Positions 29,400-62,639 of a stretch of 62,639 nucleotides of DNA are shown here, piece after piece (positions within the stretch are counted from its first letter, which is position 1; every line of letters starts with the position of its first letter). A program made the position numbers and the translations under genes. Source of the stretch: an uncultured bacterium (GTDB lineage Bacteria; Verrucomicrobiota; Kiritimatiellia; PWTM01); contig CAKZPT010000014.1 in assembly GCA_937139365.1 (NCBI GenBank), positions 1 to 62,639 of the forward strand, in the 5' to 3' direction. A model generated the notes under the pieces. It made no database searches and was not told where the DNA came from. It worked only from the letters and a program-made list of their open reading frames with translations.

Positions 29400-29966
29400 A
29401 TGACGACCGGGCGACCGCCGAACGTCCTCGTGCCGCTGACCACCGGCTCGGAGGAGCTGGAGGCCGTCGGCGCGGTCAATCTGTTGCGACGCGCAGGGTG
29501 CGAGGTGGTCGTGGCCGGCCTCGAGGAGCCCCCCATCGTCTGCGCCCGGAGGCTTCGCATCGTCCCGGACGCCCGTTGGGCCGACCTGCGGCCGGAGGAG
29601 TTCGATGCGCTCGCGCTTCCCGGCGGGGCGGAGGGGACACGACGGTTCCTCGATCGCCCCGACCTGATCGCCGCCGTGCGCGCCCTTCATGACGCGGGCC
29701 GGTGGGTCGCGGCGATCTGCGCGGCGCCGCTGGTGCTGCAGGCCGCGGGGTTGCTGCGCGGACGCCGGGCGACCAGCCATCCCTCGGTCCGCGAACGGTT
29801 GACCGATCCCGTCTACTCCGAGGAAGCCGTCGTAGTGGACGGCCGCGTCATCACCAGCCGCGGCGCGGGCACTGTTGTGCCGTTCGGGCTGGCGCTGGTC
29901 GGGGCCCTCTGCGGTCCCGAGGCGGCCGCCCGGGTGGCGAGGGAAATCGTTTACACCGGCGGCTGA
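29400..29966 (+). CDS. DJ-1/PfpI-family protein
   Basis: A 188-residue member of the glutamine-amidotransferase-like superfamily. It has VLVPLTTGSEELEAVGAVNLLRRAG with the DJ-1-type Glu, ALALPGGAEG, and the nucleophile elbow VAAICAAPLVLQAAGLLRG, in which the Cys would be the reactive or redox-sensing residue. TSHPSVRERL and ITSRGAGTVVPFGLALV complete the fold. Members act as deglycases, chaperone-like or oxidative-stress proteins in the cytoplasm; sequence alone does not choose between these. It lies 34 bp after tsf and may be cotranscribed. Its end overlaps the convergent permease gene by 16 bases. Confidence 0.9.
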   Translation: MTTGRPPNVLVPLTTGSEELEAVGAVNLLRRAGCEVVVAGLEEPPIVCARRLRIVPDARWADLRPEEFDALALPGGAEGTRRFLDRPDLIAAVRALHDAGRWVAAICAAPLVLQAAGLLRGRRATSHPSVRERLTDPVYSEEAVVVDGRVITSRGAGTVVPFGLALVGALCGPEAAARVAREIVYTGG

Positions 29967-30976
29967 GCCCGTGCGGCTTGGCGCCGACCGCCCGCAACCA
30001 GCGCACCCGCCAACAGGATCGTCAGCGCCACGGCAGCCGCGTGGCCGGCGGCTGTCGGGGCGGGCACGTGGCAAACCGGCGCGGCGTCGGGAAACGAGGG
30101 CAGGATCCAGCGGTCCACCACCCACCCCGTGGTCAGCGCGGTCGCCACGAGGCAGCCGAGGTACACCAGCCCCGCCCCGCGTCCCAGGATCTTCGACAGG
30201 GCGCCCAGCATGGCCGCGTTGGTGGCCGGACCGGTGATGAGGAACACCAGCGCCGCGCCCGGCGAAACGCCCGCCTGCATCAGGCCCAACGCGATCGGGA
30301 CCGAGGCCGTCGAGCAGACGTACATCGGTATGCCCACCGCCAGCATCAGCAGCATGCCCGGCCAGCCCGGCGGCACGTGGTTCCTCAAAATGTTCGGCGG
30401 CAAAAGCGCTCCCAACAGGGCCGCGATCAACAACCCTGCGAGCAGTTCGCGACCAATGTCCGCCGGCAACGTCACAAAGCCGTGCCGGAGCGCCCGCCAC
30501 CACCATGGCAGCCGCGGTCCGGCAGCGCTCTCCTCCGCCGGGACCGCGTGCGCGGGCGGCGGCAGCGCGTCCACCGTCCAGCCGCACAGGACCCCCGACA
30601 CGAGCGCCGCCAGCGGACGAACGGCGGCGATGACAGGTCCCAGCAGGGCGTAGGAGACGAGGATGCTATCCACGCCGGTCTGGGGTGTGGACATCAGAAA
30701 CGCAGCCGTCGCGCCACGACCGGCTCCCTGCCGTCGCAGCGACAGCGCCACGGGAATTACCCCGCAGGAACATAACGGGAGCGGTATGCCGAACAGGGCG
30801 GCCTTCGCCGTCGGCCAGCCTCCCCGCCCCCCAAGGTGCCGGGCGATCCAGGAGGCCGGTAAGACCACGTACAGCAGCCCGGCAACGAAAAAACCAAACA
30901 GAAGGAAGGGGGCCATCTGAGCCGCAATCCCCCACGCTGCCGCCATCACGCGGCCCGCTGAACTCCACAGGTCCAC
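29951..30976 (-). CDS. SO_0444/ArsP-type membrane permease
   Basis: Polytopic inner-membrane protein of 341 residues with about eight to ten hydrophobic helices in two halves. The motif IPLPLCSCGVIPVALSLRRQG and the second-half pair YVCSTASVPIALGLMQAG and LITGPATNAAML are diagnostic of the PF03773 permease family (ArsP and the SO_0444 Cu/Zn efflux branch). The Cys pair in PLCSCG and the other Cys support a thiophilic metal or metalloid substrate. The start is GTG at 30976, with a promoter whose -10 ends 8-9 bases upstream, so the mRNA may be leaderless. It is divergent from the GH127 remnant across an AT-rich gap holding an inverted repeat. No ArsR- or CsoR-type regulator gene is adjacent. 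Confidence 0.85.
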   Translation of the reverse strand: MDLWSSAGRVMAAAWGIAAQMAPFLLFGFFVAGLLYVVLPASWIARHLGGRGGWPTAKAALFGIPLPLCSCGVIPVALSLRRQGAGRGATAAFLMSTPQTGVDSILVSYALLGPVIAAVRPLAALVSGVLCGWTVDALPPPAHAVPAEESAAGPRLPWWWRALRHGFVTLPADIGRELLAGLLIAALLGALLPPNILRNHVPPGWPGMLLMLAVGIPMYVCSTASVPIALGLMQAGVSPGAALVFLITGPATNAAMLGALSKILGRGAGLVYLGCLVATALTTGWVVDRWILPSFPDAAPVCHVPAPTAAGHAAAVALTILLAGALVAGGRRQAARAQPPV

Positions 30977-51473: not shown

Positions 51474-52280
51474 TCAGCCGCCGGCGGGCGAACGGTCGAG
51501 CCGCGAGCCGGTCACGCGCGCCGGAATCCCCACCGCAATGGCGTAGGGGGGCACGTCTTGCGTGACGAGCGCATGCGCGCCAACGATCGCGTGTTCGCCG
51601 ACCTTCACGCCGTCGAGGACGGTCGCCTTCGCGCCGATCCACGCGCCGTCGCCGACCTCCGCTCCGCCGCGGGTGGTGTAGGGCTGGTCAAGGATGGGGA
51701 TGTCCGTGCGCGCCGTCTCATGGCCTGCGCCGACGATGTAGACGTAGGCGGCCAGGAGGGCTTTTCGTCCGATCCGGGTGCGGCCGTAGGATCCGATCCG
51801 GCAGAAGGCGCCGATGTTGCAGCCCTCCGCCAGCTCGATCGTGCCGTCGGTGGTGGTCACCACGCTGTGCAAGCCGACGAAGACCCGGTCCCCGATCCGG
51901 ATCCCGTCGCCGGCCTGTCCCCTGGCGTCGAGCACCACTCCGTCGCTGAGGATGACGTCGTCGCCAAGCGAGATACGCTTCGCATGGCGCAGGATCAGGC
52001 GCCGCCCGAAGACCACGTGCCGTCCGCAGCTCCGAAAGAGGCGCGGATAGAATTTCGCCCGCAGCCAGTAGCCGAGCGCGCCGGGCCAATCCCCGAACAG
52101 GCCGGTCACCAGCTCGTACCACAGGAAGGCGCCCGCGCCGACGTCGCCGACGACCATCCGCCAGTACTTCGCCCACGCGCCCCGCCGCGGGTCTTGCAAG
52201 GCATCCTGCGCGCCGCGTCGGCCGCCACGCGGGTCCGCGTCCGACGCCTCGGGCGCCGCTCGGTGGAGGGGATCGCTCAT
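51474..52280 (-). CDS. Left-handed beta-helix acyltransferase (WcaF/maltose-acetyltransferase type)
   Basis: A protein of 268 residues. The N-terminus is poorly conserved ([15 protein letters not shown]); from about 100 to 255 hexapeptide repeats form a left-handed beta-helix: [75 protein letters not shown] and [19 protein letters not shown]. The family moves an acetyl or similar group onto a sugar or nucleotide-sugar in the cytoplasm. The ATG overlaps the end of top6B (ATGA), so it is last in that operon. The start at 52280 is preferred over earlier in-frame codons. Confidence 0.82.
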
Positions 52281-54025
52281 GCCTCCAGGTGCGTCCGTTC
52301 GAGCATTCGTTCCAACCGGCGGCGAAGGTCGGCCTCCGCCCGGTCGGACAGGTCCAGGATCTGTCGCAGGCCGAGCGTCAGGTGGGGCAGATAGGTTTGG
52401 ATGTACTCCCGTTTGCGCTGCGCCTCGGCCTCGCGACGACGCCGGCGGAGGAACACCGCCAGGCGCCGACCGCATTCCTGTAGCGCGAACGTCGCCTCGC
52501 GCAGGATTTCGGGGTAGGCGGCCACCGCGTCCTTGCTTTCGCTGGTGAACGGCACCCAGACGCTGGCGATGTGCAACAGCAGCACAACCGGCCCCACCGG
52601 CAACGCGCCCTTCGGCTGCGCCAGGCCGTACGTCTTCCAGTTGACGCCCAGCACGGCTTTCGTCAGCGCGCACGCGCCGGCCTGGTAGAGCAGCGGCACG
52701 CGGTTGGCGAACCGCAACACCCTCACCGGCTCGTCGGCGGCCTCCGCGCCTTCGCCGGGCCGCCAGCACGCCAGGCCGGCCTCGATCAGAAACGGATTGC
52801 CCCGGTACACGGCCGGCTCGCGGCTAACCGCCGTGTAGAACTCTGCGGTCACCTCCTTCCGCAAGCCGGCGAGCAGCGCCGACTCGCCGATCGGCGACAG
52901 GCAGTCCATCGGCGGTCGCATTAGCCGGGTGGACCCGATGGCGCGGTACAGCGTCTCGGCCTCGCGATGAGCGATCCGCGAGGGCCGGGCCGCCGGATCG
53001 AGCCCCGCGCGCCGGCAGATGTCGAGCGCGGTCCGGTCGCTGACGCGCGAAAACTCCGTGGCCGGCGCCGACCGCAGCGTCCGGGCCGTCGTGTCCTTCA
53101 GAATCTGTATCCACATCCCTAGCTCGACGCCGTGGGGATGGGGGAGGATCTCGGCCGGCGGCCGCGGCAGTTCCTGCAAGGCGCGGCGAAAGGTCTGCCA
53201 GGCGGCGTCCATCGGCTCCGCGCCCCCTTCACCTCCTCCGGCCGTTGTAACCTCCGTCGACGTGGAGGCCGACGCGGCGGGTTCCCCGTTGTCGCCGGGC
53301 TCCTTGCCGTGCTCCTTCGGCATCAGCAGGACGCGGTAATGAAGCTGCAGCTGCGGATTGGCGACCGCGCACTGCCGCAGGAACTCGTCCACCGACAGGC
53401 GCCCGCGGACGTAGGCGGCCTCCAGCTCGATGGCCACGCGCGTGCCATGGCCGGCCGGGACCGCTTGGCCGGGGCGGTCTGGATCAGAAAATGAGGGCCG
53501 CCAGTCGCATTCCTCGTCCTTCAGGATCACCGGGCGGTTGGCCCGCGTGTCGATCTGGACCTCGATCGCATGGGCGGTCCGCCCCCGCGCCGTCCGCGAC
53601 CTGATCTCCGTGGACCGGCCGGTCGTCAACTGGCCGTACATGCCCGCGGCGCTGATGCCGATGCCCTGCTGCCCGCGGGACATCCGCAGCCGGTGAAACT
53701 TCGATCCGTACAGGAGCTTCGCGAAGATTTTTGGAATCTGCGCCCGCACGATGCCCGGGCCGTTGTCGGTGACCTCGACGCGGAACCGTTGGGCGGCCAC
53801 CTGCCGGATCTCGACGGCAATCTCCGGCAGTACCCCCGCCTCCTCACAGGCGTCGAGCGAGTTGTCCACCGCCTCCTTGACCGCGGTCAGCAGCGCCCGC
53901 CGAGGGCTGTCGAAGCCGAGCAGATGCCGGTTCTTGAGAAAAAACTCGGAGACCGAGATCTCCCGCTGCTGTTGAGCCATGCTCTCGGCCGTCGCGGCCG
54001 CGGCGCCCTTCGCCAGCTTTCCCAT
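52277..54025 (-). CDS. top6B: DNA topoisomerase VI subunit B
   Basis: GHKL ATPase subunit of the type IIB topoisomerase, 582 residues. The ATP site shows [14 protein letters not shown] (N-box, residues 51-64), VTDNGPGI (87-92) and [20 protein letters not shown] (106-125); the transducer carries [20 protein letters not shown] with the K-loop, and [18 protein letters not shown]. The protein is near archaeal length with an inserted acidic, low-complexity loop (about 245-275). No Spo11-like subunit A gene lies next to it, whereas A normally follows B; here an acyltransferase follows. Such genes are uncommon in bacteria and suggest transfer or a distinct role. ATG 54025 follows a GGGGAG site. Confidence 0.92.
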
Positions 54026-55961: not shown

Positions 55962-56100
55962 GTGCGAATCGTGGTCTGGATGACGTCCGTGCTCATGGCG
56001 GCCGGTCCGCCCCAAGCTGTACCGCAGCCCGCTTCCGGGGGCAACCTTCGGCGCGTCGCGTGGGGCGCGACCCCGTCGGGGCGGCGAGGTTCCCCGCTCA

Positions 56101-56385
56101 GTGGCGGAACAGGATCGACCGGACCTCGACCCCTTCGATCGCCTCGAGGTCGCGCCGCAGCGCCGCGGCTTCGCGCGGCGTCCCGGCGACGTCGAGGACG
56201 ATCAGACCGCTGGGCGAGCCGCCTTCGCCGTGGACGTCGTGGAGCCCGAGCCGCACGCGGATCCGGTCGCCGTGGCGGGTGAGGACCGTCTGCACACGCC
56301 CCGCCTGCCGCGTCCGCTCGGTCACATGCACGGCAAGGATCACGTGGTCCCCGCGCCGCCGCATCGTCCGTGGGCTGTTCGTCAT
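56101..56385 (-). CDS. TM1266-like small ACT-domain regulator
   Basis: A protein of 94 residues related to the TM1266 group (the iron-only hydrogenase system regulator label): VILAVHVTERTRQAGRVQTV, LTRHGDRIRVRLGLHDVH, LIVLDVAGTPREAAALRRDL and EGVEVRSILFRH. The fold is an ACT-like beta-alpha-beta unit and probably binds a small ligand. It begins 31 bp after the kinase-flavoprotein fusion and reads the same way, so the two are likely cotranscribed. No hydrogenase gene is present here, so a wider redox role is possible. Confidence 0.75.
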
Positions 56386-56416
56386 GGCCGCACCTCCGTC
56401 TCGCCGTCCGTCCTCC

Positions 56417-58843
56417 TCAGGCGCCGTACACCTTTTCGAAGGGCCACATCAGGACGCCGCCGTCCAAAACGCGGACGTCCGCGTAGCCGGCATGGCGCAA
56501 CAGGATGGAGGCCTCGTAGGCCCGCAGCGAATTGCGGCAGCAGAGCAGCAGCGCACCGTCGCGCGGCAGCTCGCGTAGCCGGCCGCGCAGCGATCCGAGC
56601 GGGATGCACCGGGAACCCGGGATGCGCATCTCCTCGTACTCGCGTGGCGTGCTGACGTCGACGAGGACGGCGTCCGGCCGCTCCGCCAGCCACCGGCGCG
56701 CCTCGAGCGGAGAAAGGCCGGGCATGTGGCCGTCGAGCTTGTTGCGCGCGACGTTGCAGGCGGTGATCAAGTTGTCCAGCGCCGGCGAGTACGGCGGCGC
56801 GTAGCCGAGGTCCAGGTGCGCGATGCGGTCCACGGTCATGCCGGCCGCGATCGCGGTGGCGGCCACGTCGAGGCGCTTGTCGCCGCGGCCGGGGCCGAGC
56901 GTCTGGATCCCCAGCAGCCGCCGCGTCGGGCGCTCGACGACGAGCTTGAGCATCAGCAAGCTGGCCCCCGGCAGGAAATGCTCGCGGTCGGGCGCGGCGC
57001 AATGCGCGCAGACAACGTCGCGGCCGGCCGCCCGCGCATCGCGCTCGCTGAGCCCCGTGCGGCCCACGCAGTAGTCGAACACCTCGCAGACCACCGTGCC
57101 CAGGATCCCCTCGAAGCGGTCGTCGCCCCCGCAGATGTGCACCGCGGCGACCCGCCCCTGCTTGTTCGCCGTCGAGCCCAGCGGCACGTAGGTCGGTCGG
57201 CCGGTCAACAGGTCGAGGTTCTCGACGCAATCGCCGGCGGCGTAGATGTCCGGATCGCTGGTTTGCATGTGCTCGTTGACGCGGATGCCGCCGGTGACGC
57301 CGAGCTCAAGCCCGGCCGCCTGGGCCAGCGACGTCTCCGGCCGCACCCCCGCGGCCAGCACGACCAGGTCGGCGGGGATCCCACCGTGGTCCGTCTCGAC
57401 GCACCGGACGACGTCCTCGCCTCGGAATCCGCGCACCTCGACGCCGGTGAGCACCCGCACCCCGTTGGCCTCGAGATGCTGCTGAAGCAGCAGCGCCATT
57501 TCCTCGTCGAGCATGCCGAGGATCTGCGGCATCCGTTCGACGATCGTGACGCGGCAGCCCCGTTCGGCCAGCGCCTTGGTCATCTCGACGGCGATCAGAC
57601 CGCCGCCGACCATGACCACGTCCAACGCCCGTTGGCCGGCGACCGCCTGGCGGATGCCCTCCGCGTCGTGCACGCCGTGCAGGGTATAGATGCCCCGCAG
57701 CGAGCGGCCGGGCAGGTCCGGGACGACCGGACGCGCGCCGGTGGCCAGCACCAGCTTGTCGTAGGGCACCCACCGTTCCTCGCCGTTGGCCAGATCCCGG
57801 ACGCGGACGCGCCGTCCCCTGCGATCGATCTCCTCCGCCTGCGTACAGCTAAGCACACAGACGTTGCGGACGTTTTGGAAGAAGATCGGGTCCCGGACCG
57901 CGCCCAGCGGAGTCGAGAGCAGCGCGCGGCGGTCCTTCACCGTGCCGGACACGTAGTACGGCAGGCCGCAGCCGGCGTAGGACATCAGCTCGCCGCGTTC
58001 GACGATCGTCACCTCGGCGTCGGGATCCAGCCGCATCACCTTCGAGGCCACCTTGGGCCCGGCGGCCACGCCGCCGACGATCACGACGCGGCGGCGAGCG
58101 CGCGGCGGCGCGGCGGACTCAGGGGCCACGGCGGCCGGCCAGTCCACCAGAAACTCCGCCCCGCCGAGGTCCGAGCCGGCGACCCGCACCCACCCGCCCG
58201 CTCCCTCCACCAGCGCACGCACGAAGGCCAGCCCCAGCCCGACCCCCGGCGTCCGCCCCTCCGCCGGCGCGGCCCCCCGGTGAAAGGGCTCGAAAATGCG
58301 CTCGCGTTCCTCCGGCGGAACGCCGGGACCCGAATCTCCGACCGCCATCCGGATGCGGTCGTCCTCCTCCCGCGCCACCAGCACCCGCACCTGCCCGTGG
58401 CGGGGCGTGTACTTCAGGGCGTTCTCGATCAGCGCCCGCAGGACTTCCACCAGCGTAGCTTCGCTCGCGCGCACGAAGGCGGGATCGGCGCGGATGTCGG
58501 CGGACAGGGCGATGTCACGGCGGCCAGCCTCGTCGAGCCACTGTTGATGCACCCGGCGCACCACGGCGACGGCGTCCGCCGCCTCCTCCGCCGCCGCGGC
58601 GGGCCGCCGTACGATCGCCAGAATGCGGCGGACGGTCTCCAGGGCCTCGGCCAGCCGACCGTCGGCCCGTTCGAGGAGGTCCCTCTGCCGGGGCGAGAGC
58701 GGACCGGCGAGGTCGCCCAGCAGCGTGCGCAGCACCGTCTCCGCCGCACCGATCGGCGACTTGAGCTGATGCGCGATCACCGCCGCGAAGCGAAGGGGAT
58801 CGGACAGGGAATTGCCGGAGCCAGGCTGCGCGGGCTGCGTCAT
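56417..58843 (-). CDS. Three-part fusion: histidine kinase - CoA-disulfide-reductase-like flavoprotein - rhodanese
   Basis: One frame of 808 residues. Residues 15-75: HisKA-like dimer helix with the phospho-acceptor His25 (VIAHQLKSPIGAAE). Residues 130-235: HATPase_c with N-box LIENALKY, G1 DSGPG, FEPFHRG and GVGLGLAFV. Residues 252-690: FAD/NAD(P) disulfide oxidoreductase with RRVVIVGGVAAGPKVASKV, the CoA-disulfide-reductase Cys292 in SYAGCGLPYYVSG, VMVGGGLIAVEMTKALAE and PDIYAAGDCVENLDLL. Residues 710-808: rhodanese with LLLCCRNSLRAYEA, active Cys769. No membrane helix or PAS domain is seen, so it is cytoplasmic. The flavoprotein and rhodanese parts likely sense a sulfur or thiol/NAD(P)H state for the kinase. 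No response regulator is in the window. The start is 58843 or 58855 (GTP between two ATGs). Confidence 0.9.
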   Translation of the reverse strand: MTQPAQPGSGNSLSDPLRFAAVIAHQLKSPIGAAETVLRTLLGDLAGPLSPRQRDLLERADGRLAEALETVRRILAIVRRPAAAAEEAADAVAVVRRVHQQWLDEAGRRDIALSADIRADPAFVRASEATLVEVLRALIENALKYTPRHGQVRVLVAREEDDRIRMAVGDSGPGVPPEERERIFEPFHRGAAPAEGRTPGVGLGLAFVRALVEGAGGWVRVAGSDLGGAEFLVDWPAAVAPESAAPPRARRRVVIVGGVAAGPKVASKVMRLDPDAEVTIVERGELMSYAGCGLPYYVSGTVKDRRALLSTPLGAVRDPIFFQNVRNVCVLSCTQAEEIDRRGRRVRVRDLANGEERWVPYDKLVLATGARPVVPDLPGRSLRGIYTLHGVHDAEGIRQAVAGQRALDVVMVGGGLIAVEMTKALAERGCRVTIVERMPQILGMLDEEMALLLQQHLEANGVRVLTGVEVRGFRGEDVVRCVETDHGGIPADLVVLAAGVRPETSLAQAAGLELGVTGGIRVNEHMQTSDPDIYAAGDCVENLDLLTGRPTYVPLGSTANKQGRVAAVHICGGDDRFEGILGTVVCEVFDYCVGRTGLSERDARAAGRDVVCAHCAAPDREHFLPGASLLMLKLVVERPTRRLLGIQTLGPGRGDKRLDVAATAIAAGMTVDRIAHLDLGYAPPYSPALDNLITACNVARNKLDGHMPGLSPLEARRWLAERPDAVLVDVSTPREYEEMRIPGSRCIPLGSLRGRLRELPRDGALLLCCRNSLRAYEASILLRHAGYADVRVLDGGVLMWPFEKVYGA

Positions 58844-58931: not shown

Positions 58932-59837
58932 CTACGGTCCAGCCGCGCCCACCGGCTCCGCGCCGCCCGCACGGGCGGCCAGGACGCGCCGGTACACCGA
59001 CTCCGCCCGGTAGCTGGACCGAACCCACGGCCCGGCTTCGCAATGGCGAAACCCGCGGCGAAGCGCATCCGACCTCAACCCCACGAACTCCTCCGGCGTC
59101 CAGTACCGTTCCACCGGGGCGCGCTGACGCGTCGGCTGAAGGTACTGACCGATCATCAACACCTCCACGCCGGCGGCGAGAAGATCGTCCATCGTCCGGG
59201 CGACCTCCTCCGCCGTCTCGCCGAGTCCGACCATCATGGCGGACTTGATCACCGCCCGCGGCTCCAATCTCCGGTACGCCCGCAGCACGGCGAGGGAGCG
59301 GTCGTAGTCCGCCCCGCGCCGGACGGCTGGCGTCAGCCGCCGGACGGTCTCGATGTTGTGGCCGAACACCTCCGGCGCGACGGCGGCGAGCGTCTCGAGG
59401 GCGGACTCGGAGCCGCCGAAGTCCGAGGGCAGAACCTCTACCCCACACCCCGGCACGATGGCGCGGATGGTTTGCACCGTCCGGGCCATCTGCGACGCCC
59501 CGCCGTCGGCCAGATCGTCCCGGGTGACCATCGTGACGACGACAAAGCGAAGGCCCATCGCCGCCGCGGCCTCCGCCACGCGGCGAGGCTCGGCCGGGTC
59601 GGGCGCGGCCGGCCGGCCGCGCCGGATGCCGCAGAAGGTGCAGCCGCGGGTGCACAGGTCGCCCAGGATCAAAAAGGTCGCCGTCCCCTCGCGGCCCCAG
59701 CATTCGTGGCGGTTCGGGCAGCGCGCCTCCTCGCAGACCGTGTGCAGACGGGTAGCCGCAACCGTCCGGCGCACGGCGCTGTCGCCGTGCACCAGCGGTT
59801 TTCGGAGCCAAGACGGTTTGGGGGCGGGCGGCGTCAT
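58932..59837 (-). CDS. lipA: Lipoyl synthase
   Basis: Radical-SAM enzyme that inserts two sulfurs into protein-bound octanoyl groups; 301 residues. The auxiliary cluster motif is VCEEARCPNRHECW, the radical-SAM motif CTRGCTFCGI, then VTMVTRDDLADGGAS, EVLPSDFGG, FGHNIETVRRLTPAVR, MMVGLGETAEEV, IGQYLQPT and the C-terminal RSSYRAE. ATG 59837 is used; a TTG just before it is in frame but unlikely. A 35-bp perfect palindrome lies immediately upstream. LipB is not adjacent. The gene reads the same way as the upstream PEP-CTERM gene. Confidence 0.96.
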   Translation of the reverse strand: MTPPAPKPSWLRKPLVHGDSAVRRTVAATRLHTVCEEARCPNRHECWGREGTATFLILGDLCTRGCTFCGIRRGRPAAPDPAEPRRVAEAAAAMGLRFVVVTMVTRDDLADGGASQMARTVQTIRAIVPGCGVEVLPSDFGGSESALETLAAVAPEVFGHNIETVRRLTPAVRRGADYDRSLAVLRAYRRLEPRAVIKSAMMVGLGETAEEVARTMDDLLAAGVEVLMIGQYLQPTRQRAPVERYWTPEEFVGLRSDALRRGFRHCEAGPWVRSSYRAESVYRRVLAARAGGAEPVGAAGP

Positions 59838-59842
59838 CAACG

Positions 59843-59895: not shown

Positions 59896-62639
59896 TCAGC
59901 GCAACTGCCGGCGCAACCGACGGCGCAACAACTTCGCGACCGCCGCCGCCAGGCCGACCAGCCCCAGCGTCGCCGGCTCCGGCACCACGGTCAGCGTCAC
60001 GTCATCCTCGTAGCCGGTCAAGGTGCCGTAGTTAACCCGGAACACGTTGCCCCCCGCCGTGAACTCCGCGTTCTCCGCGAGCCCGCTGAAGGTCGAGCTG
60101 TCGATCGAGCCCCATCCGCTGATGATCGGGATCACCGCTCCCAACGTCAACGGGTTCGGCGCCGTTACCAACAGGGTCGCGTTGCCCAGCGTCAACGTTT
60201 GGGGAGCGCTCATCAGCAGCTGGTCGTACTGGCCGGCGAGCGTGCCGAGGATCTCCACGTCGAAGGACGAACCAGCTTGGAACGTGACATCGCCGCCGGT
60301 CACCGTGAGCGCGCCCGGGCTGACGCCGGGGGCCACCGTCGCGCCGGCGCCGACGATGAGGCCGCCGAGGAGCGTGCCATTGCCGCTCAGGGTCTGGCCC
60401 GAGGCCAGCGTCAGCGCCCTGTCCGTTCGGCCCGACACGCTCAGCGTCGCGCCGGCATCGATGCGGATGGTATTAGCTGCCGCGAACATGGCGTTGGTCA
60501 GCAGCTCCAGCGTCCCGTTCATGATCCGGGCCATGCCCGTGAACGTGTTGGTGTTGATCATCGACACCGTCGCGGGGCCGTCCTTCACGAACGAAATTGG
60601 CCCCGCGATCGTCGTCCGATTGGTCGCGGCCACGGTCTGGTGCACCGTGAACGTCGCGAGCGTGGAGCTGCGGTTGGTGACGAACGAGCGGTACAGGTTG
60701 GTGATGCCCGAGGTCAGGTTGCCGATCCGTTGGTCGAAGCCGTTGAGGTCGAGGGTGCCGGCGGTGTCGCCGGTCGTCGGATCGCCGATCGTCAGGTTCA
60801 CGTTGGTCGGCAGCGCGTTCGCGAGGCCCAGGACCAACAGACCGCCCTGCCAGATGCGGGCATTCGTGAACACGTTCCCGCCGACGTTCAGGTAGTTGGT
60901 GCCGAGGTTGTTGTTGCCGCCAGAGAAGAAGAAAATGTCCGACGCGCTGGAGACGATCGGGACGTTCTCGATGAAGAACGACCCGTTCTGCGCGGAGAAG
61001 TTGATACCGTTCACCCCGTAAATGCCGTTCGTGACCCGGATCGTCGCGCTGTTCCAGACCGTCAAGCGCGTCAGCGCGCTGGACACGCTGATGGGCCCGC
61101 CGAGGACAACGACGCCTCCGGTGGCCTGCAGCGCGCCGTTGTAAGAGGTTGACGCGTCGCCGCCGTGGAACACGAGCGGGTTCGTGATCGAGAGCCCGCC
61201 GGCCAAGAAGATCTGCCCCCCGTTGGTCGACACGATCACCCCGCGGCCGAAGGCGTCCGAGTGCGTGGCGTAGATCCGGCTGTTGAGCGAATGGCCGCTG
61301 ACGCCGGCCACGATGGTCCCTCCCGAGTAGTCGTTCGAGGTGCTCAACACCAGCCAGCCGGTCCCGGTCTTGACCAGCCGGCCGGAGCCGGTGATCTCGT
61401 TGGTGATGGCCAATGTTCGGTTGGCGTCCACGTGGATCGTGCCGCCGCCGGGCATCAGGGTCACTTTGCGGTCGCGCAGCGTCATCAGGCCGCTGCCGCT
61501 GACCTGCAGCGTGCCGCCATCGAACCGGAGACCGCCGCCGATCTCGCCCAGGGTCTCGTTGGTGATGTTCAACACCCCGGAGGTCAGGCGGGTGCCGCCG
61601 CCGTAACTGTTCCACGTGTTGTGCAACACGGTGGTGCCGCCGCCGACCACATGCAGCTCGCCGGCGCCGGCGACCGTGCTGTCCACGCGCAGCACCCGTC
61701 CGGACGCCGCGCCGAGCCCGCCGAAGGTCTCGACCACGATCAGCCGCTCAGCCAGGAGCCTCACGTTGTTCGACACGGCCAGCAGCGAGCCGCCGCGCAG
61801 GGCGATGTTGGTTTCGGTCGTGACGGACGGCACCGTGCCCAGCGCGGCGTCGTTCGTGATCGCCAGCGCGCCCGATTGGAGCACCGTCAGGCCGTGGTAG
61901 TTCGTCGCCGTCAGCAGCACGACCACGCTGTTCGGGTCGCCGCCGACGGGGCCGACATACAACAGGTTGGTGGTGTCGGCGACGATCGACCCTCCCGGCA
62001 CGACCAGCGTCCCGCCGCCGCCGCCCAGCCGCACGCGGTCCGATCCCCACGCCACCGTCCCGCTGAACACCATGTTGCTCAGCGGCGCCGCGCCGAGGAA
62101 GGAGTTCGTCAGGTCCGGGCGGAACGAATCGTCGAAGCTGATGCTGCTGGCGCTGTTGGCGCCGAGCGCATAGGCCGGCGCCGCGCGGCCCATTTTGTCG
62201 TAGGCGGCGTCAATGAAGATCTGGTCCATTCCGTAGGTCGGGCCGATCGCCCCGCCGGCGTTGACCGTCAGCGAGGCCGCCGTGCCGAGGGCCGCGATGT
62301 TCGTCAGCAGCAGCGTTCCGCCGTTGACCGTCACCGGGCTGTTGAGAATTTGCCCATCCGCCACCACCTGCAGGGTTCCGCCCTCGACGATCGTGTCGCC
62401 GGTATGGGCGTTGGGCGACGCCAGCCCGAAGGTTGCGGCGCCCCGCTTCACGACGCTCACCGCGCCGGTGAACCGCCCGGCGAAGTTGTTGATGAACCCG
62501 CTGGTCGGGTTGTGGTAGGTGAAAATCGCCGGGTTCGTGCTCGTTACGTAGTGGTTCGTGACGAGCGCGGCGGTCTGGTTGGTGAACGTGATCGTGGCGA
62601 CCGTGATGTTGTTCGAGTTCAGGTCGAGCCAGTTGGCCG
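59896..62639 (-). CDS. Autotransporter-type passenger with PEP-CTERM sorting tail (cut by window edge)
   Basis: More than 910 residues are visible; the reading frame continues past the right edge, so the signal peptide is not seen. It is a beta-strand-repeat passenger with many units of the type GDTIVEGGTLQVVADGQILN, DYSGGTIVAGVSGHSLNSRI and FTGMARIMNGTLELLTNAMF, then the block GWGSIDSSTF and NYGTLTGYEDDVTLTVV, and the sorting tail VPEPATLGLVGLAAAVAKLL with the basic end RRRLRRQLR. The exosortase/archaeosortase pathway recognises this PEP motif, helix and basic tail. The last 200 residues resemble the copy ending at 19000, so the two are paralogues. The frame is open throughout. It is a surface or exopolymer-linked protein. 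Confidence 0.88.
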   Translation of the reverse strand, partial: ANWLDLNSNNITVATITFTNQTAALVTNHYVTSTNPAIFTYHNPTSGFINNFAGRFTGAVSVVKRGAATFGLASPNAHTGDTIVEGGTLQVVADGQILNSPVTVNGGTLLLTNIAALGTAASLTVNAGGAIGPTYGMDQIFIDAAYDKMGRAAPAYALGANSASSISFDDSFRPDLTNSFLGAAPLSNMVFSGTVAWGSDRVRLGGGGGTLVVPGGSIVADTTNLLYVGPVGGDPNSVVVLLTATNYHGLTVLQSGALAITNDAALGTVPSVTTETNIALRGGSLLAVSNNVRLLAERLIVVETFGGLGAASGRVLRVDSTVAGAGELHVVGGGTTVLHNTWNSYGGGTRLTSGVLNITNETLGEIGGGLRFDGGTLQVSGSGLMTLRDRKVTLMPGGGTIHVDANRTLAITNEITGSGRLVKTGTGWLVLSTSNDYSGGTIVAGVSGHSLNSRIYATHSDAFGRGVIVSTNGGQIFLAGGLSITNPLVFHGGDASTSYNGALQATGGVVVLGGPISVSSALTRLTVWNSATIRVTNGIYGVNGINFSAQNGSFFIENVPIVSSASDIFFFSGGNNNLGTNYLNVGGNVFTNARIWQGGLLVLGLANALPTNVNLTIGDPTTGDTAGTLDLNGFDQRIGNLTSGITNLYRSFVTNRSSTLATFTVHQTVAATNRTTIAGPISFVKDGPATVSMINTNTFTGMARIMNGTLELLTNAMFAAANTIRIDAGATLSVSGRTDRALTLASGQTLSGNGTLLGGLIVGAGATVAPGVSPGALTVTGGDVTFQAGSSFDVEILGTLAGQYDQLLMSAPQTLTLGNATLLVTAPNPLTLGAVIPIISGWGSIDSSTFSGLAENAEFTAGGNVFRVNYGTLTGYEDDVTLTVVPEPATLGLVGLAAAVAKLLRRRLRRQLR

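What the first reader, a model, noticed from the sequence alone, without database searches (positions are those of the whole stretch)
56101..58843. Histidine kinase fused to a CoA-disulfide-reductase-like flavoprotein and a rhodanese, beside a TM1266-like protein
One uninterrupted 808-residue frame joins a soluble kinase (His25, N, G1, G2 boxes), an FAD/NAD(P) disulfide reductase with the CoA-disulfide-reductase Cys292 and a rhodanese with Cys769. CoA-disulfide reductase plus rhodanese is a known pair; putting a kinase in front makes a one-protein route from thiol, persulfide or NAD(P)H state to phosphotransfer. The TM1266-like protein 31 bp downstream is usually linked to redox enzyme control. 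The partner regulator is not in the window. I know of no described system with this exact order.
Basis: partly seen in the sequence, partly recalled or inferred. Interest (0 to 1): 0.78.

Follow-up and report, generated by a model that had tools for sequence, protein, structure and literature searches.

The report
Persulfide-reductase-fused kinase linked to hydrogenases
A bacterial signalling kinase is built into the same protein chain as an NADH-dependent persulfide-reductase-like enzyme; the arrangement recurs in about 20 genomes from several phyla, almost always with NAD-linked hydrogenase genes and a hydrogenase-operon receiver protein, so it is probably a redox or sulfur sensor that controls hydrogen metabolism.

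Summary
Window 56417-58843 encodes one 808-residue protein: HisKA + HATPase_c kinase, NADH persulfide-reductase-like flavoprotein, rhodanese. Thirty-one bp downstream lies a 95-aa ACT-like protein; it is CPF_0552-like and fails the TM1266 cut-offs. The fusion is not an artefact: 20 genomes (Kiritimatiellae-type, Lentisphaerae, Planctomycetota, a Spirochaete MAG) carry it, and His25, the N/G1/G2 boxes and Cys292 are invariant in 16 aligned fusions. The flavoprotein is closest to Archaeoglobus NADH-dependent persulfide reductase (43% identity), including its 'GAVR' loop, so CoA-disulfide is an unlikely substrate. New: the fusion is tied to hydrogenases. It sits in hyp operons (G059, G060, G605), beside hox genes (L047, G015), and in a hydrogenase island with a nickel transporter and HydEFG (G390). 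A stand-alone receiver ending the hox operon, in the window's own genome too, occurs in 17 of 20 fusion genomes but only 8 of several hundred sampled others. Best explanation: a soluble kinase whose C-terminal enzyme reports NADH/persulfide state and which, with that receiver, controls hydrogenase. Phosphotransfer and the signal are inferred, not shown. I found no published description. New variant of a known kind.

The parts
56417..58843 (-). Kinase-Npsr-rhodanese fusion gene, 808 aa (P0001)
   Evidence: Open frame without stops; Pfam domains; conserved in about 20 genomes
58607..58798 (-). DHp/HisKA helical hairpin, residues 16-79; phosphoacceptor candidate His25 at 58769-58771
   Evidence: HisKA 26.0 bits; helices 16-42 and 51-79 in the model; His25 invariant in 16 fusions, followed by Gln26
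58133..58462 (-). HATPase_c (CA) domain, residues 128-237, with N box N141, G1 D170/G172/G174, G2 G200/G202/G204
   Evidence: 78.5 bits, cut-off 26.4; invariant in 16 fusions
56774..58090 (-). FAD/NAD(P) flavoprotein of CoADR/Npsr type, residues 252-690; active-site Cys292 at 57968-57970; STPLGAVR loop; Glu436 after beta2 of the NAD fold
   Evidence: structure match to 6pfz, TMt 0.96, 43% identity
56444..56701 (-). Rhodanese domain, residues 715-800; catalytic Cys769 at 56537-56539
   Evidence: 50.6 bits; aligned to the rhodanese Cys of 6pfz, 3icr and 3nta
56098..56385 (-). 95-aa CPF_0552-like (ACT-like) protein, 31 bp downstream
   Evidence: CPF_0552 80.2 bits vs cut-off 85; TM1266 25.3 vs 60.8. 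Directly follows the fusion in 4 same-genus genomes; in G006 a CBS gene lies between
58932..59840 (-). Upstream same-strand gene, lipoyl-synthase-like radical SAM protein, 88 bp before the fusion (context only)
   Evidence: Radical_SAM 67.3 bits; lipA naming is from sequence inspection

Best explanation
The protein is a soluble, dimeric histidine kinase whose sensor is a persulfide-reductase-type flavoenzyme attached at the C-terminal side of the ATPase domain. The enzyme's redox or ligand state (NADH/NAD+, persulfide or polysulfide on Cys769 or bound CoA, reduced or oxidised Cys292/FAD) changes the shared dimer and shifts the kinase/phosphatase balance at His25. The most likely phosphoryl partner is the stand-alone receiver encoded at the end of the NAD-linked [NiFe]-hydrogenase (hox-type) operon; the output is control of hydrogenase synthesis, maturation or activity according to NADH and sulfur supply. 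Shown: fusion, conserved catalytic residues, predicted fold, co-occurrence and gene linkage with hydrogenase and receiver. Inferred: catalytic activity, direction of the signal, phosphotransfer to this receiver, and how a receiver without a DNA-binding domain acts.
For: Fusion and catalytic residues conserved across about 20 genomes. Predicted fold: mean pLDDT 86.7, closest structure AfNpsr 6pfz. Hydrogenase linkage in six separate lineages: hypD-hypE-hypA-FUSION-hypB-CBS in G060 and hypE-FUSION-hypB in G059; hypA-hypB-FUSION in G605; fusion divergent from hoxEF-U-Y-H in L047 and from a hoxE-like gene in G015; Rex - GAF-kinase - receiver - FUSION in L054, near NAD/FAD and 4Fe-4S subunits; Rex, HoxN nickel transporter, FUSION, HydF/E/G, an [FeFe]-hydrogenase-kinase and a hox operon on one contig of G390. 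Receiver after the hox operon in the window's own genome, G000:C41. Receiver in 9 of 11 fusion carriers vs 7 of 335 others in the class, p = 3e-12; with families as units p = 9e-4. In the genomes of L047-L050, L054 and L062 the receiver follows the large subunit by 549-760 bp. In G005/G008 the fusion is followed by a PAS kinase and a REC...REC protein.
Against: No activity, expression or interaction data. In the window's own family the fusion is not adjacent to the hox or hyp genes. Eight sampled genomes have the receiver without the fusion, some with other kinases in the cluster. G003 (68% complete), G015 and L053's genome (G350) lack a clear orthologue of the receiver. The receiver has no DNA-binding domain. 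Co-occurrence is inflated by relatedness. Distance trees of kinase, receiver and HoxH all correlate, so co-inheritance of the whole set explains that as well as pairing does. Gln after the phosphoacceptor is unusual. The L062 copy has an in-frame stop right after its H box.
Confidence: 0.55

Rival explanations
1. General sulfur/redox sensor kinase whose real targets are sulfur or thiol-stress genes; the hydrogenase association reflects shared anaerobic life and co-inheritance.
For: Kinase-less relatives (53-62% identical) sit with ArsR-type repressors, OsmC, thioredoxin and Acr3-like genes. The window has an OsmC gene two genes downstream of the small protein. Same-family fusions are not next to hox or hyp genes.
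Against: Direct insertion into hyp operons and hydrogenase islands in several unrelated lineages, and the receiver in 17 of 20 fusion genomes. HypD occurs in 9 of 11 carriers vs 99 of 335 others.
Confidence: 0.2
2. The kinase part is mainly a phosphatase or a degenerate scaffold that sets the phosphorylation of a receiver charged by a second kinase (PAS or GAF kinase next door).
For: HQxxS/T/A in place of HExxT; a second kinase is encoded next to the fusion in G005, G008 and L054.
Against: All ATP-binding boxes and the histidine are invariant in 16 fusions. Some active kinases with HQ boxes exist, e.g. BceS type (own knowledge, not tested here). Most fusion genomes show no second kinase beside the fusion.
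Confidence: 0.12
3. The kinase domain regulates the attached persulfide reductase; the protein is an enzyme with an ATP/phospho switch, not a sensor.
For: All enzyme residues are conserved, so the flavoprotein is probably catalytic.
Against: Hydrogenase and receiver linkage has no place in this model; typical kinase boxes are kept.
Confidence: 0.08
4. Assembly artefact or chance readthrough joining two genes.
For: None beyond the high GC content of the window, which makes long chance frames common.
Against: Same order and length in about 20 independent assemblies, down to 48% identity.
Confidence: 0.01

Closest known systems
NADH-dependent persulfide reductase (Npsr) of Archaeoglobus fulgidus, PDB 6pfz, PMC7969121
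   Same: Flavoprotein plus rhodanese architecture, active-site Cys (C42), rhodanese Cys (C519), loop TTYGAVR matched by STPLGAVR; 43% identity, TMt 0.96
   Different: AfNpsr has no kinase; its in vivo role is metabolic or unknown
CoADR-RHD of Bacillus anthracis (3icr) and Npsr of Shewanella loihica (3nta)
   Same: Same two-domain enzyme, 35-37% identity
   Different: No kinase; open CoA pocket without the GAVR loop; the fusion scores below the CoADR equivalog cut-offs
Sensory [FeFe]-hydrogenases (group C) with a histidine kinase domain, e.g. PMC11406978; one is encoded in G390 (L231:616-2631)
   Same: A redox enzyme domain fused to a histidine kinase, encoded among hydrogenase genes
   Different: Enzyme part is a hydrogenase at the N-terminal side; here a persulfide-reductase-type flavoprotein at the C-terminal side
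SurR of Thermococcales (works-like comparison only)
   Same: Would couple sulfur supply to hydrogenase control
   Different: SurR is a one-protein DNA-binding redox switch; no sequence relation; comparison from the literature listed and own knowledge
TM1266 / CPF_0552 small ACT-like proteins
   Same: The downstream 95-aa protein is related to both
   Different: It fails the TM1266 cut-offs; role unknown

Membership tests
Orthodox histidine kinase (HisKA type) | HATPase_c with N, G1 and G2 boxes | tested here: met
   78.5 bits vs 26.4; boxes invariant in 16 fusions
Orthodox histidine kinase (HisKA type) | DHp two-helix hairpin with phosphoacceptor His | tested here: met
   HisKA 26.0 bits, just under the 26.9 cut-off; helices 16-42/51-79 in the model; His25 invariant
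Orthodox histidine kinase (HisKA type) | Acidic residue directly after the phosphoacceptor (HE/DxxT/N) | tested here: not met
   Gln26 in all 16 fusions
Orthodox histidine kinase (HisKA type) | Sensor domain on the N-terminal side of DHp | tested here: not met
   Only about 15 low-confidence residues precede helix 1; the enzyme lies C-terminal to the CA domain
Npsr (CoADR plus rhodanese) | Pyr_redox_2 + dimerisation domain + rhodanese, active-site Cys and rhodanese Cys | tested here: met
Npsr (CoADR plus rhodanese) | NADH-dependent per/polysulfide reductase activity | not testable with these tools
   Only inferred from closest relative AfNpsr and invariant Glu436
CoA-disulfide reductase equivalog (TIGR03385, PRK09564) | Score over the curated cut-off | tested here: not met
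   384 vs 578.8 and 341 vs 458 bits
TM1266 family regulator (downstream gene) | Score over the curated cut-off | tested here: not met
   25.3 vs 60.8 (TIGR03959), 17.3 vs 27 (Pfam)
CPF_0552 family (downstream gene) | Score over the curated cut-off | tested here: inconclusive
   80.2 vs 85 for the window protein; its G006 relative passes with 101
Two-component pair with the hox-linked receiver | Co-occurrence with a receiver | tested here: met
   17 of 20 fusion genomes; 9/11 vs 7/335 in the class
Two-component pair with the hox-linked receiver | Phosphotransfer between the two proteins | not testable with these tools
   No experiment; matched distance trees do not separate pairing from co-inheritance
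Sensory [FeFe]-hydrogenase kinase | Fe-hydrogenase domain in the same protein | tested here: not met
   No Fe_hyd domain in the fusion

The most novel reading that the evidence does not exclude
A single-protein metabolic switch: a persulfide reductase whose turnover (NADH in, polysulfide as acceptor) directly sets a kinase that tells the cell whether to send electrons to protons (hydrogenase) or to sulfur, working like SurR of archaea but as a two-component system that spread across several bacterial phyla with its hydrogenase operon and a dedicated receiver.
Probability: 0.3. Interest if true: 0.8.

Novelty: new variant of a known kind. Interest (0 to 1): 0.62.

Why it matters
How anaerobes that make or use hydrogen sense NADH and sulfur supply is poorly known outside Rex, SurR and the H2-sensing hydrogenases. 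A kinase carrying a full NADH/persulfide-reductase-type enzyme as its sensor, conserved with NAD-linked hydrogenases and a receiver encoded in the hydrogenase operon, gives a defined two-protein system that can be tested in vitro. It also shows an enzyme used as a C-terminal sensor of a kinase, opposite to the usual order.

Tried and rejected
Literature searches for a kinase-CoADR-rhodanese fusion gave no paper describing one; only open-licence papers are held. TM1266 as an explanation of the small neighbour was rejected on cut-offs; its orthologues in G005, G008 and G049 have no hydrogenase gene in the about 1.5 kb around them. Mirror-tree distances were computed but give no decision between pairing and co-inheritance. 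The viral structure library gave only generic kinases. The HypD association alone (p = 7e-4) was judged weak because eight of the eleven carriers are one family. Assembly artefact rejected by conservation. CoA-disulfide as the natural substrate judged unlikely from AfNpsr kinetics and the missed CoADR cut-offs.

Full report
WHAT IS THERE. On the minus strand the window holds, in transcription order, a lipoyl-synthase-like gene (59840-58932), the fusion gene (58843-56417), a 95-aa gene (56385-56098) and a glycosyltransferase-like gene (named by eye); gaps are 88, 31 and 82 bp. The fusion reads through 808 codons. Pfam gives HisKA (18-80, 26.0 bits, cut-off 26.9), HATPase_c (128-237), Pyr_redox_2 (252-547), Pyr_redox_dim (588-690) and Rhodanese (715-800). 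The start could also be the ATG four codons upstream. The AlphaFold2 model (24 sequences, mean pLDDT 86.7, pTM 0.68) shows a two-helix DHp hairpin, the ATPase fold, a short weak linker (242-248) and the full reductase plus rhodanese.

IT IS REAL. The same order, uninterrupted, occurs in all of the window's family genomes but one (G000-G003, G005-G008; not G004), in G015, G059 and G060 of the same class, in G388, G390 and G605 of the same phylum, and in loci named as Lentisphaerae (L048, L049), Planctomycetota (L050; L053 partial), Sedimentisphaerales (L054), a Spirochaete MAG (L062, one in-frame stop) and a MAG labelled Paceibacterota (L047; at 3.4 Mb probably misnamed, and its frame breaks in the rhodanese part). 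In 16 aligned fusions H25, Q26, N141, K144, D170, G172, G174, G200, G202, G204 and C292 never vary; C769 is present in all that reach it.

THE ENZYME PART. The best solved relative by sequence and by structure is the NADH-dependent persulfide reductase of Archaeoglobus fulgidus (6pfz; 43% identity, TMt 0.96). C292 aligns with its active-site Cys and C769 with its rhodanese Cys. The loop TTYGAVR, which in AfNpsr closes over the bound CoA and is absent from the Bacillus and Shewanella enzymes (PMC7969121), is present here as STPLGAVR. AfNpsr reduces per- and polysulfides with NADH and shows no activity with CoA-disulfide (same paper). The fusion also misses the curated CoA-disulfide-reductase cut-offs. 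So the likely chemistry is NADH plus persulfide or polysulfide. This is inference from the closest relative.

THE KINASE PART. There is no N-terminal sensor; the kinase starts almost at residue 15. Both the DHp hairpin and this class of flavoenzyme are homodimers (family knowledge; PMC7969121 for the enzyme class), so the chain would have two dimer contacts, which offers a way to couple enzyme state to the kinase (inference). The usual acidic residue after the histidine is Gln in every member. I leave open whether this favours kinase or phosphatase action.

THE HYDROGENASE LINK (new). Outside the window's own family the fusion often sits among hydrogenase genes. G060: hypD-hypE-hypA-FUSION-hypB-CBS; G059: hypE-FUSION-hypB. 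G605: hypA-hypB-FUSION. L047: divergent from a hox-type operon with fused NuoE-NuoF subunit and [NiFe] large subunit. G015: divergent from a hoxE-like gene at a contig end. L054: Rex, GAF kinase, receiver, FUSION, with NAD/FAD and 4Fe-4S subunits upstream. G390: Rex, HoxN-type nickel transporter, FUSION, then HydF, HydE, HydG, a hybrid receiver-kinase, a receiver, an [FeFe]-hydrogenase fused to a kinase, and a hox operon, all on one contig. I call the operon hox-type because of its diaphorase subunit; its large subunit scores best against VhuA, below that model's cut-off. HoxU, HoxY and the protease were named by eye.

THE LIKELY PARTNER. The hox-type operon of the window's own genome (G000:C41) ends with a stand-alone receiver domain of 128 aa. 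The same gene follows the hydrogenase large subunit, usually after the maturation protease, in G001, G002, G006, G007, G059, G060 and G390 and, 549-760 bp after the large-subunit match, in the genomes of L047, L048, L049, L050, L054 and L062. In the class it occurs in 9 of 11 fusion carriers and 7 of 335 others; in the wider phylum sample in 10 of 11 carriers and 4 of 377 others (counted from the listed handles). Overall 17 of 20 fusion genomes have it; the exceptions are a 68% complete genome, G015 and G350. With families as units the association stays (4 of 5 vs 8 of 85, p = 9e-4; the number of families is an estimate from the handles). In three non-carriers the hydrogenase cluster holds other kinases: a PAS kinase after hypA in G344, Cache-type kinases in G345 and G076. 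So the fusion looks like one of several sensors plugged into a hydrogenase receiver circuit (inference). In G005 and G008 the fusion is followed by a PAS kinase and a two-receiver protein, while the hox-type receiver is elsewhere in those genomes.

CONTRAST. The closest kinase-less relatives (53-62% identical) occur with ArsR-type repressors, OsmC, thioredoxin, Acr3-like and MinD/ferredoxin genes (named by eye), that is sulfur or metal contexts. The kinase was therefore joined to an enzyme of sulfur chemistry, and the joined form went with hydrogenases.

LIMITS. Everything beyond sequence is inferred. Co-occurrence cannot tell pairing from co-inheritance, and distance trees of kinase, enzyme, receiver and HoxH all agree. 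The receiver has no DNA-binding domain, so its output is unknown.

Noticed in passing
window 52277-54025 (-): A bacterial topoisomerase VI B subunit homologue (Topo-VIb_trans 182.7 bits); I saw no A subunit next to it.
   Followed up: partly
window 59896-62637 (-): Large passenger-repeat (PATR) protein with a C-terminal PEP-CTERM signal, cut by the window edge.
   Followed up: no
L231:616-2631 (-), genome G390: An [FeFe]-hydrogenase large-subunit domain fused to a HisKA/HATPase kinase, several kb from the persulfide-reductase-fused kinase: two redox-enzyme kinases in one hydrogenase island.
   Followed up: partly
L023:7247-7687, L145:9368-9802, L204:5576-6076: A two-CBS-domain protein recurs next to the fusion or to the other hydrogenase-cluster kinase in three genera, possibly an adenylate-sensing partner.
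   Followed up: partly
L062:5402-7771: The Spirochaete MAG copy has one in-frame stop right after the H box (HQM*SPL), beside an Mrp-type antiporter operon; pseudogene or sequencing error not resolved.
   Followed up: no
L026:4696-6240 and L027:6260-8257: Receiver - degenerate-kinase-like middle - receiver proteins downstream of the fusion in G005 and G008; only the two receivers are recognised by Pfam.
   Followed up: partly
window 29400-30976: DJ-1/PfpI gene facing an ArsP_1-type permease gene.
   Followed up: no
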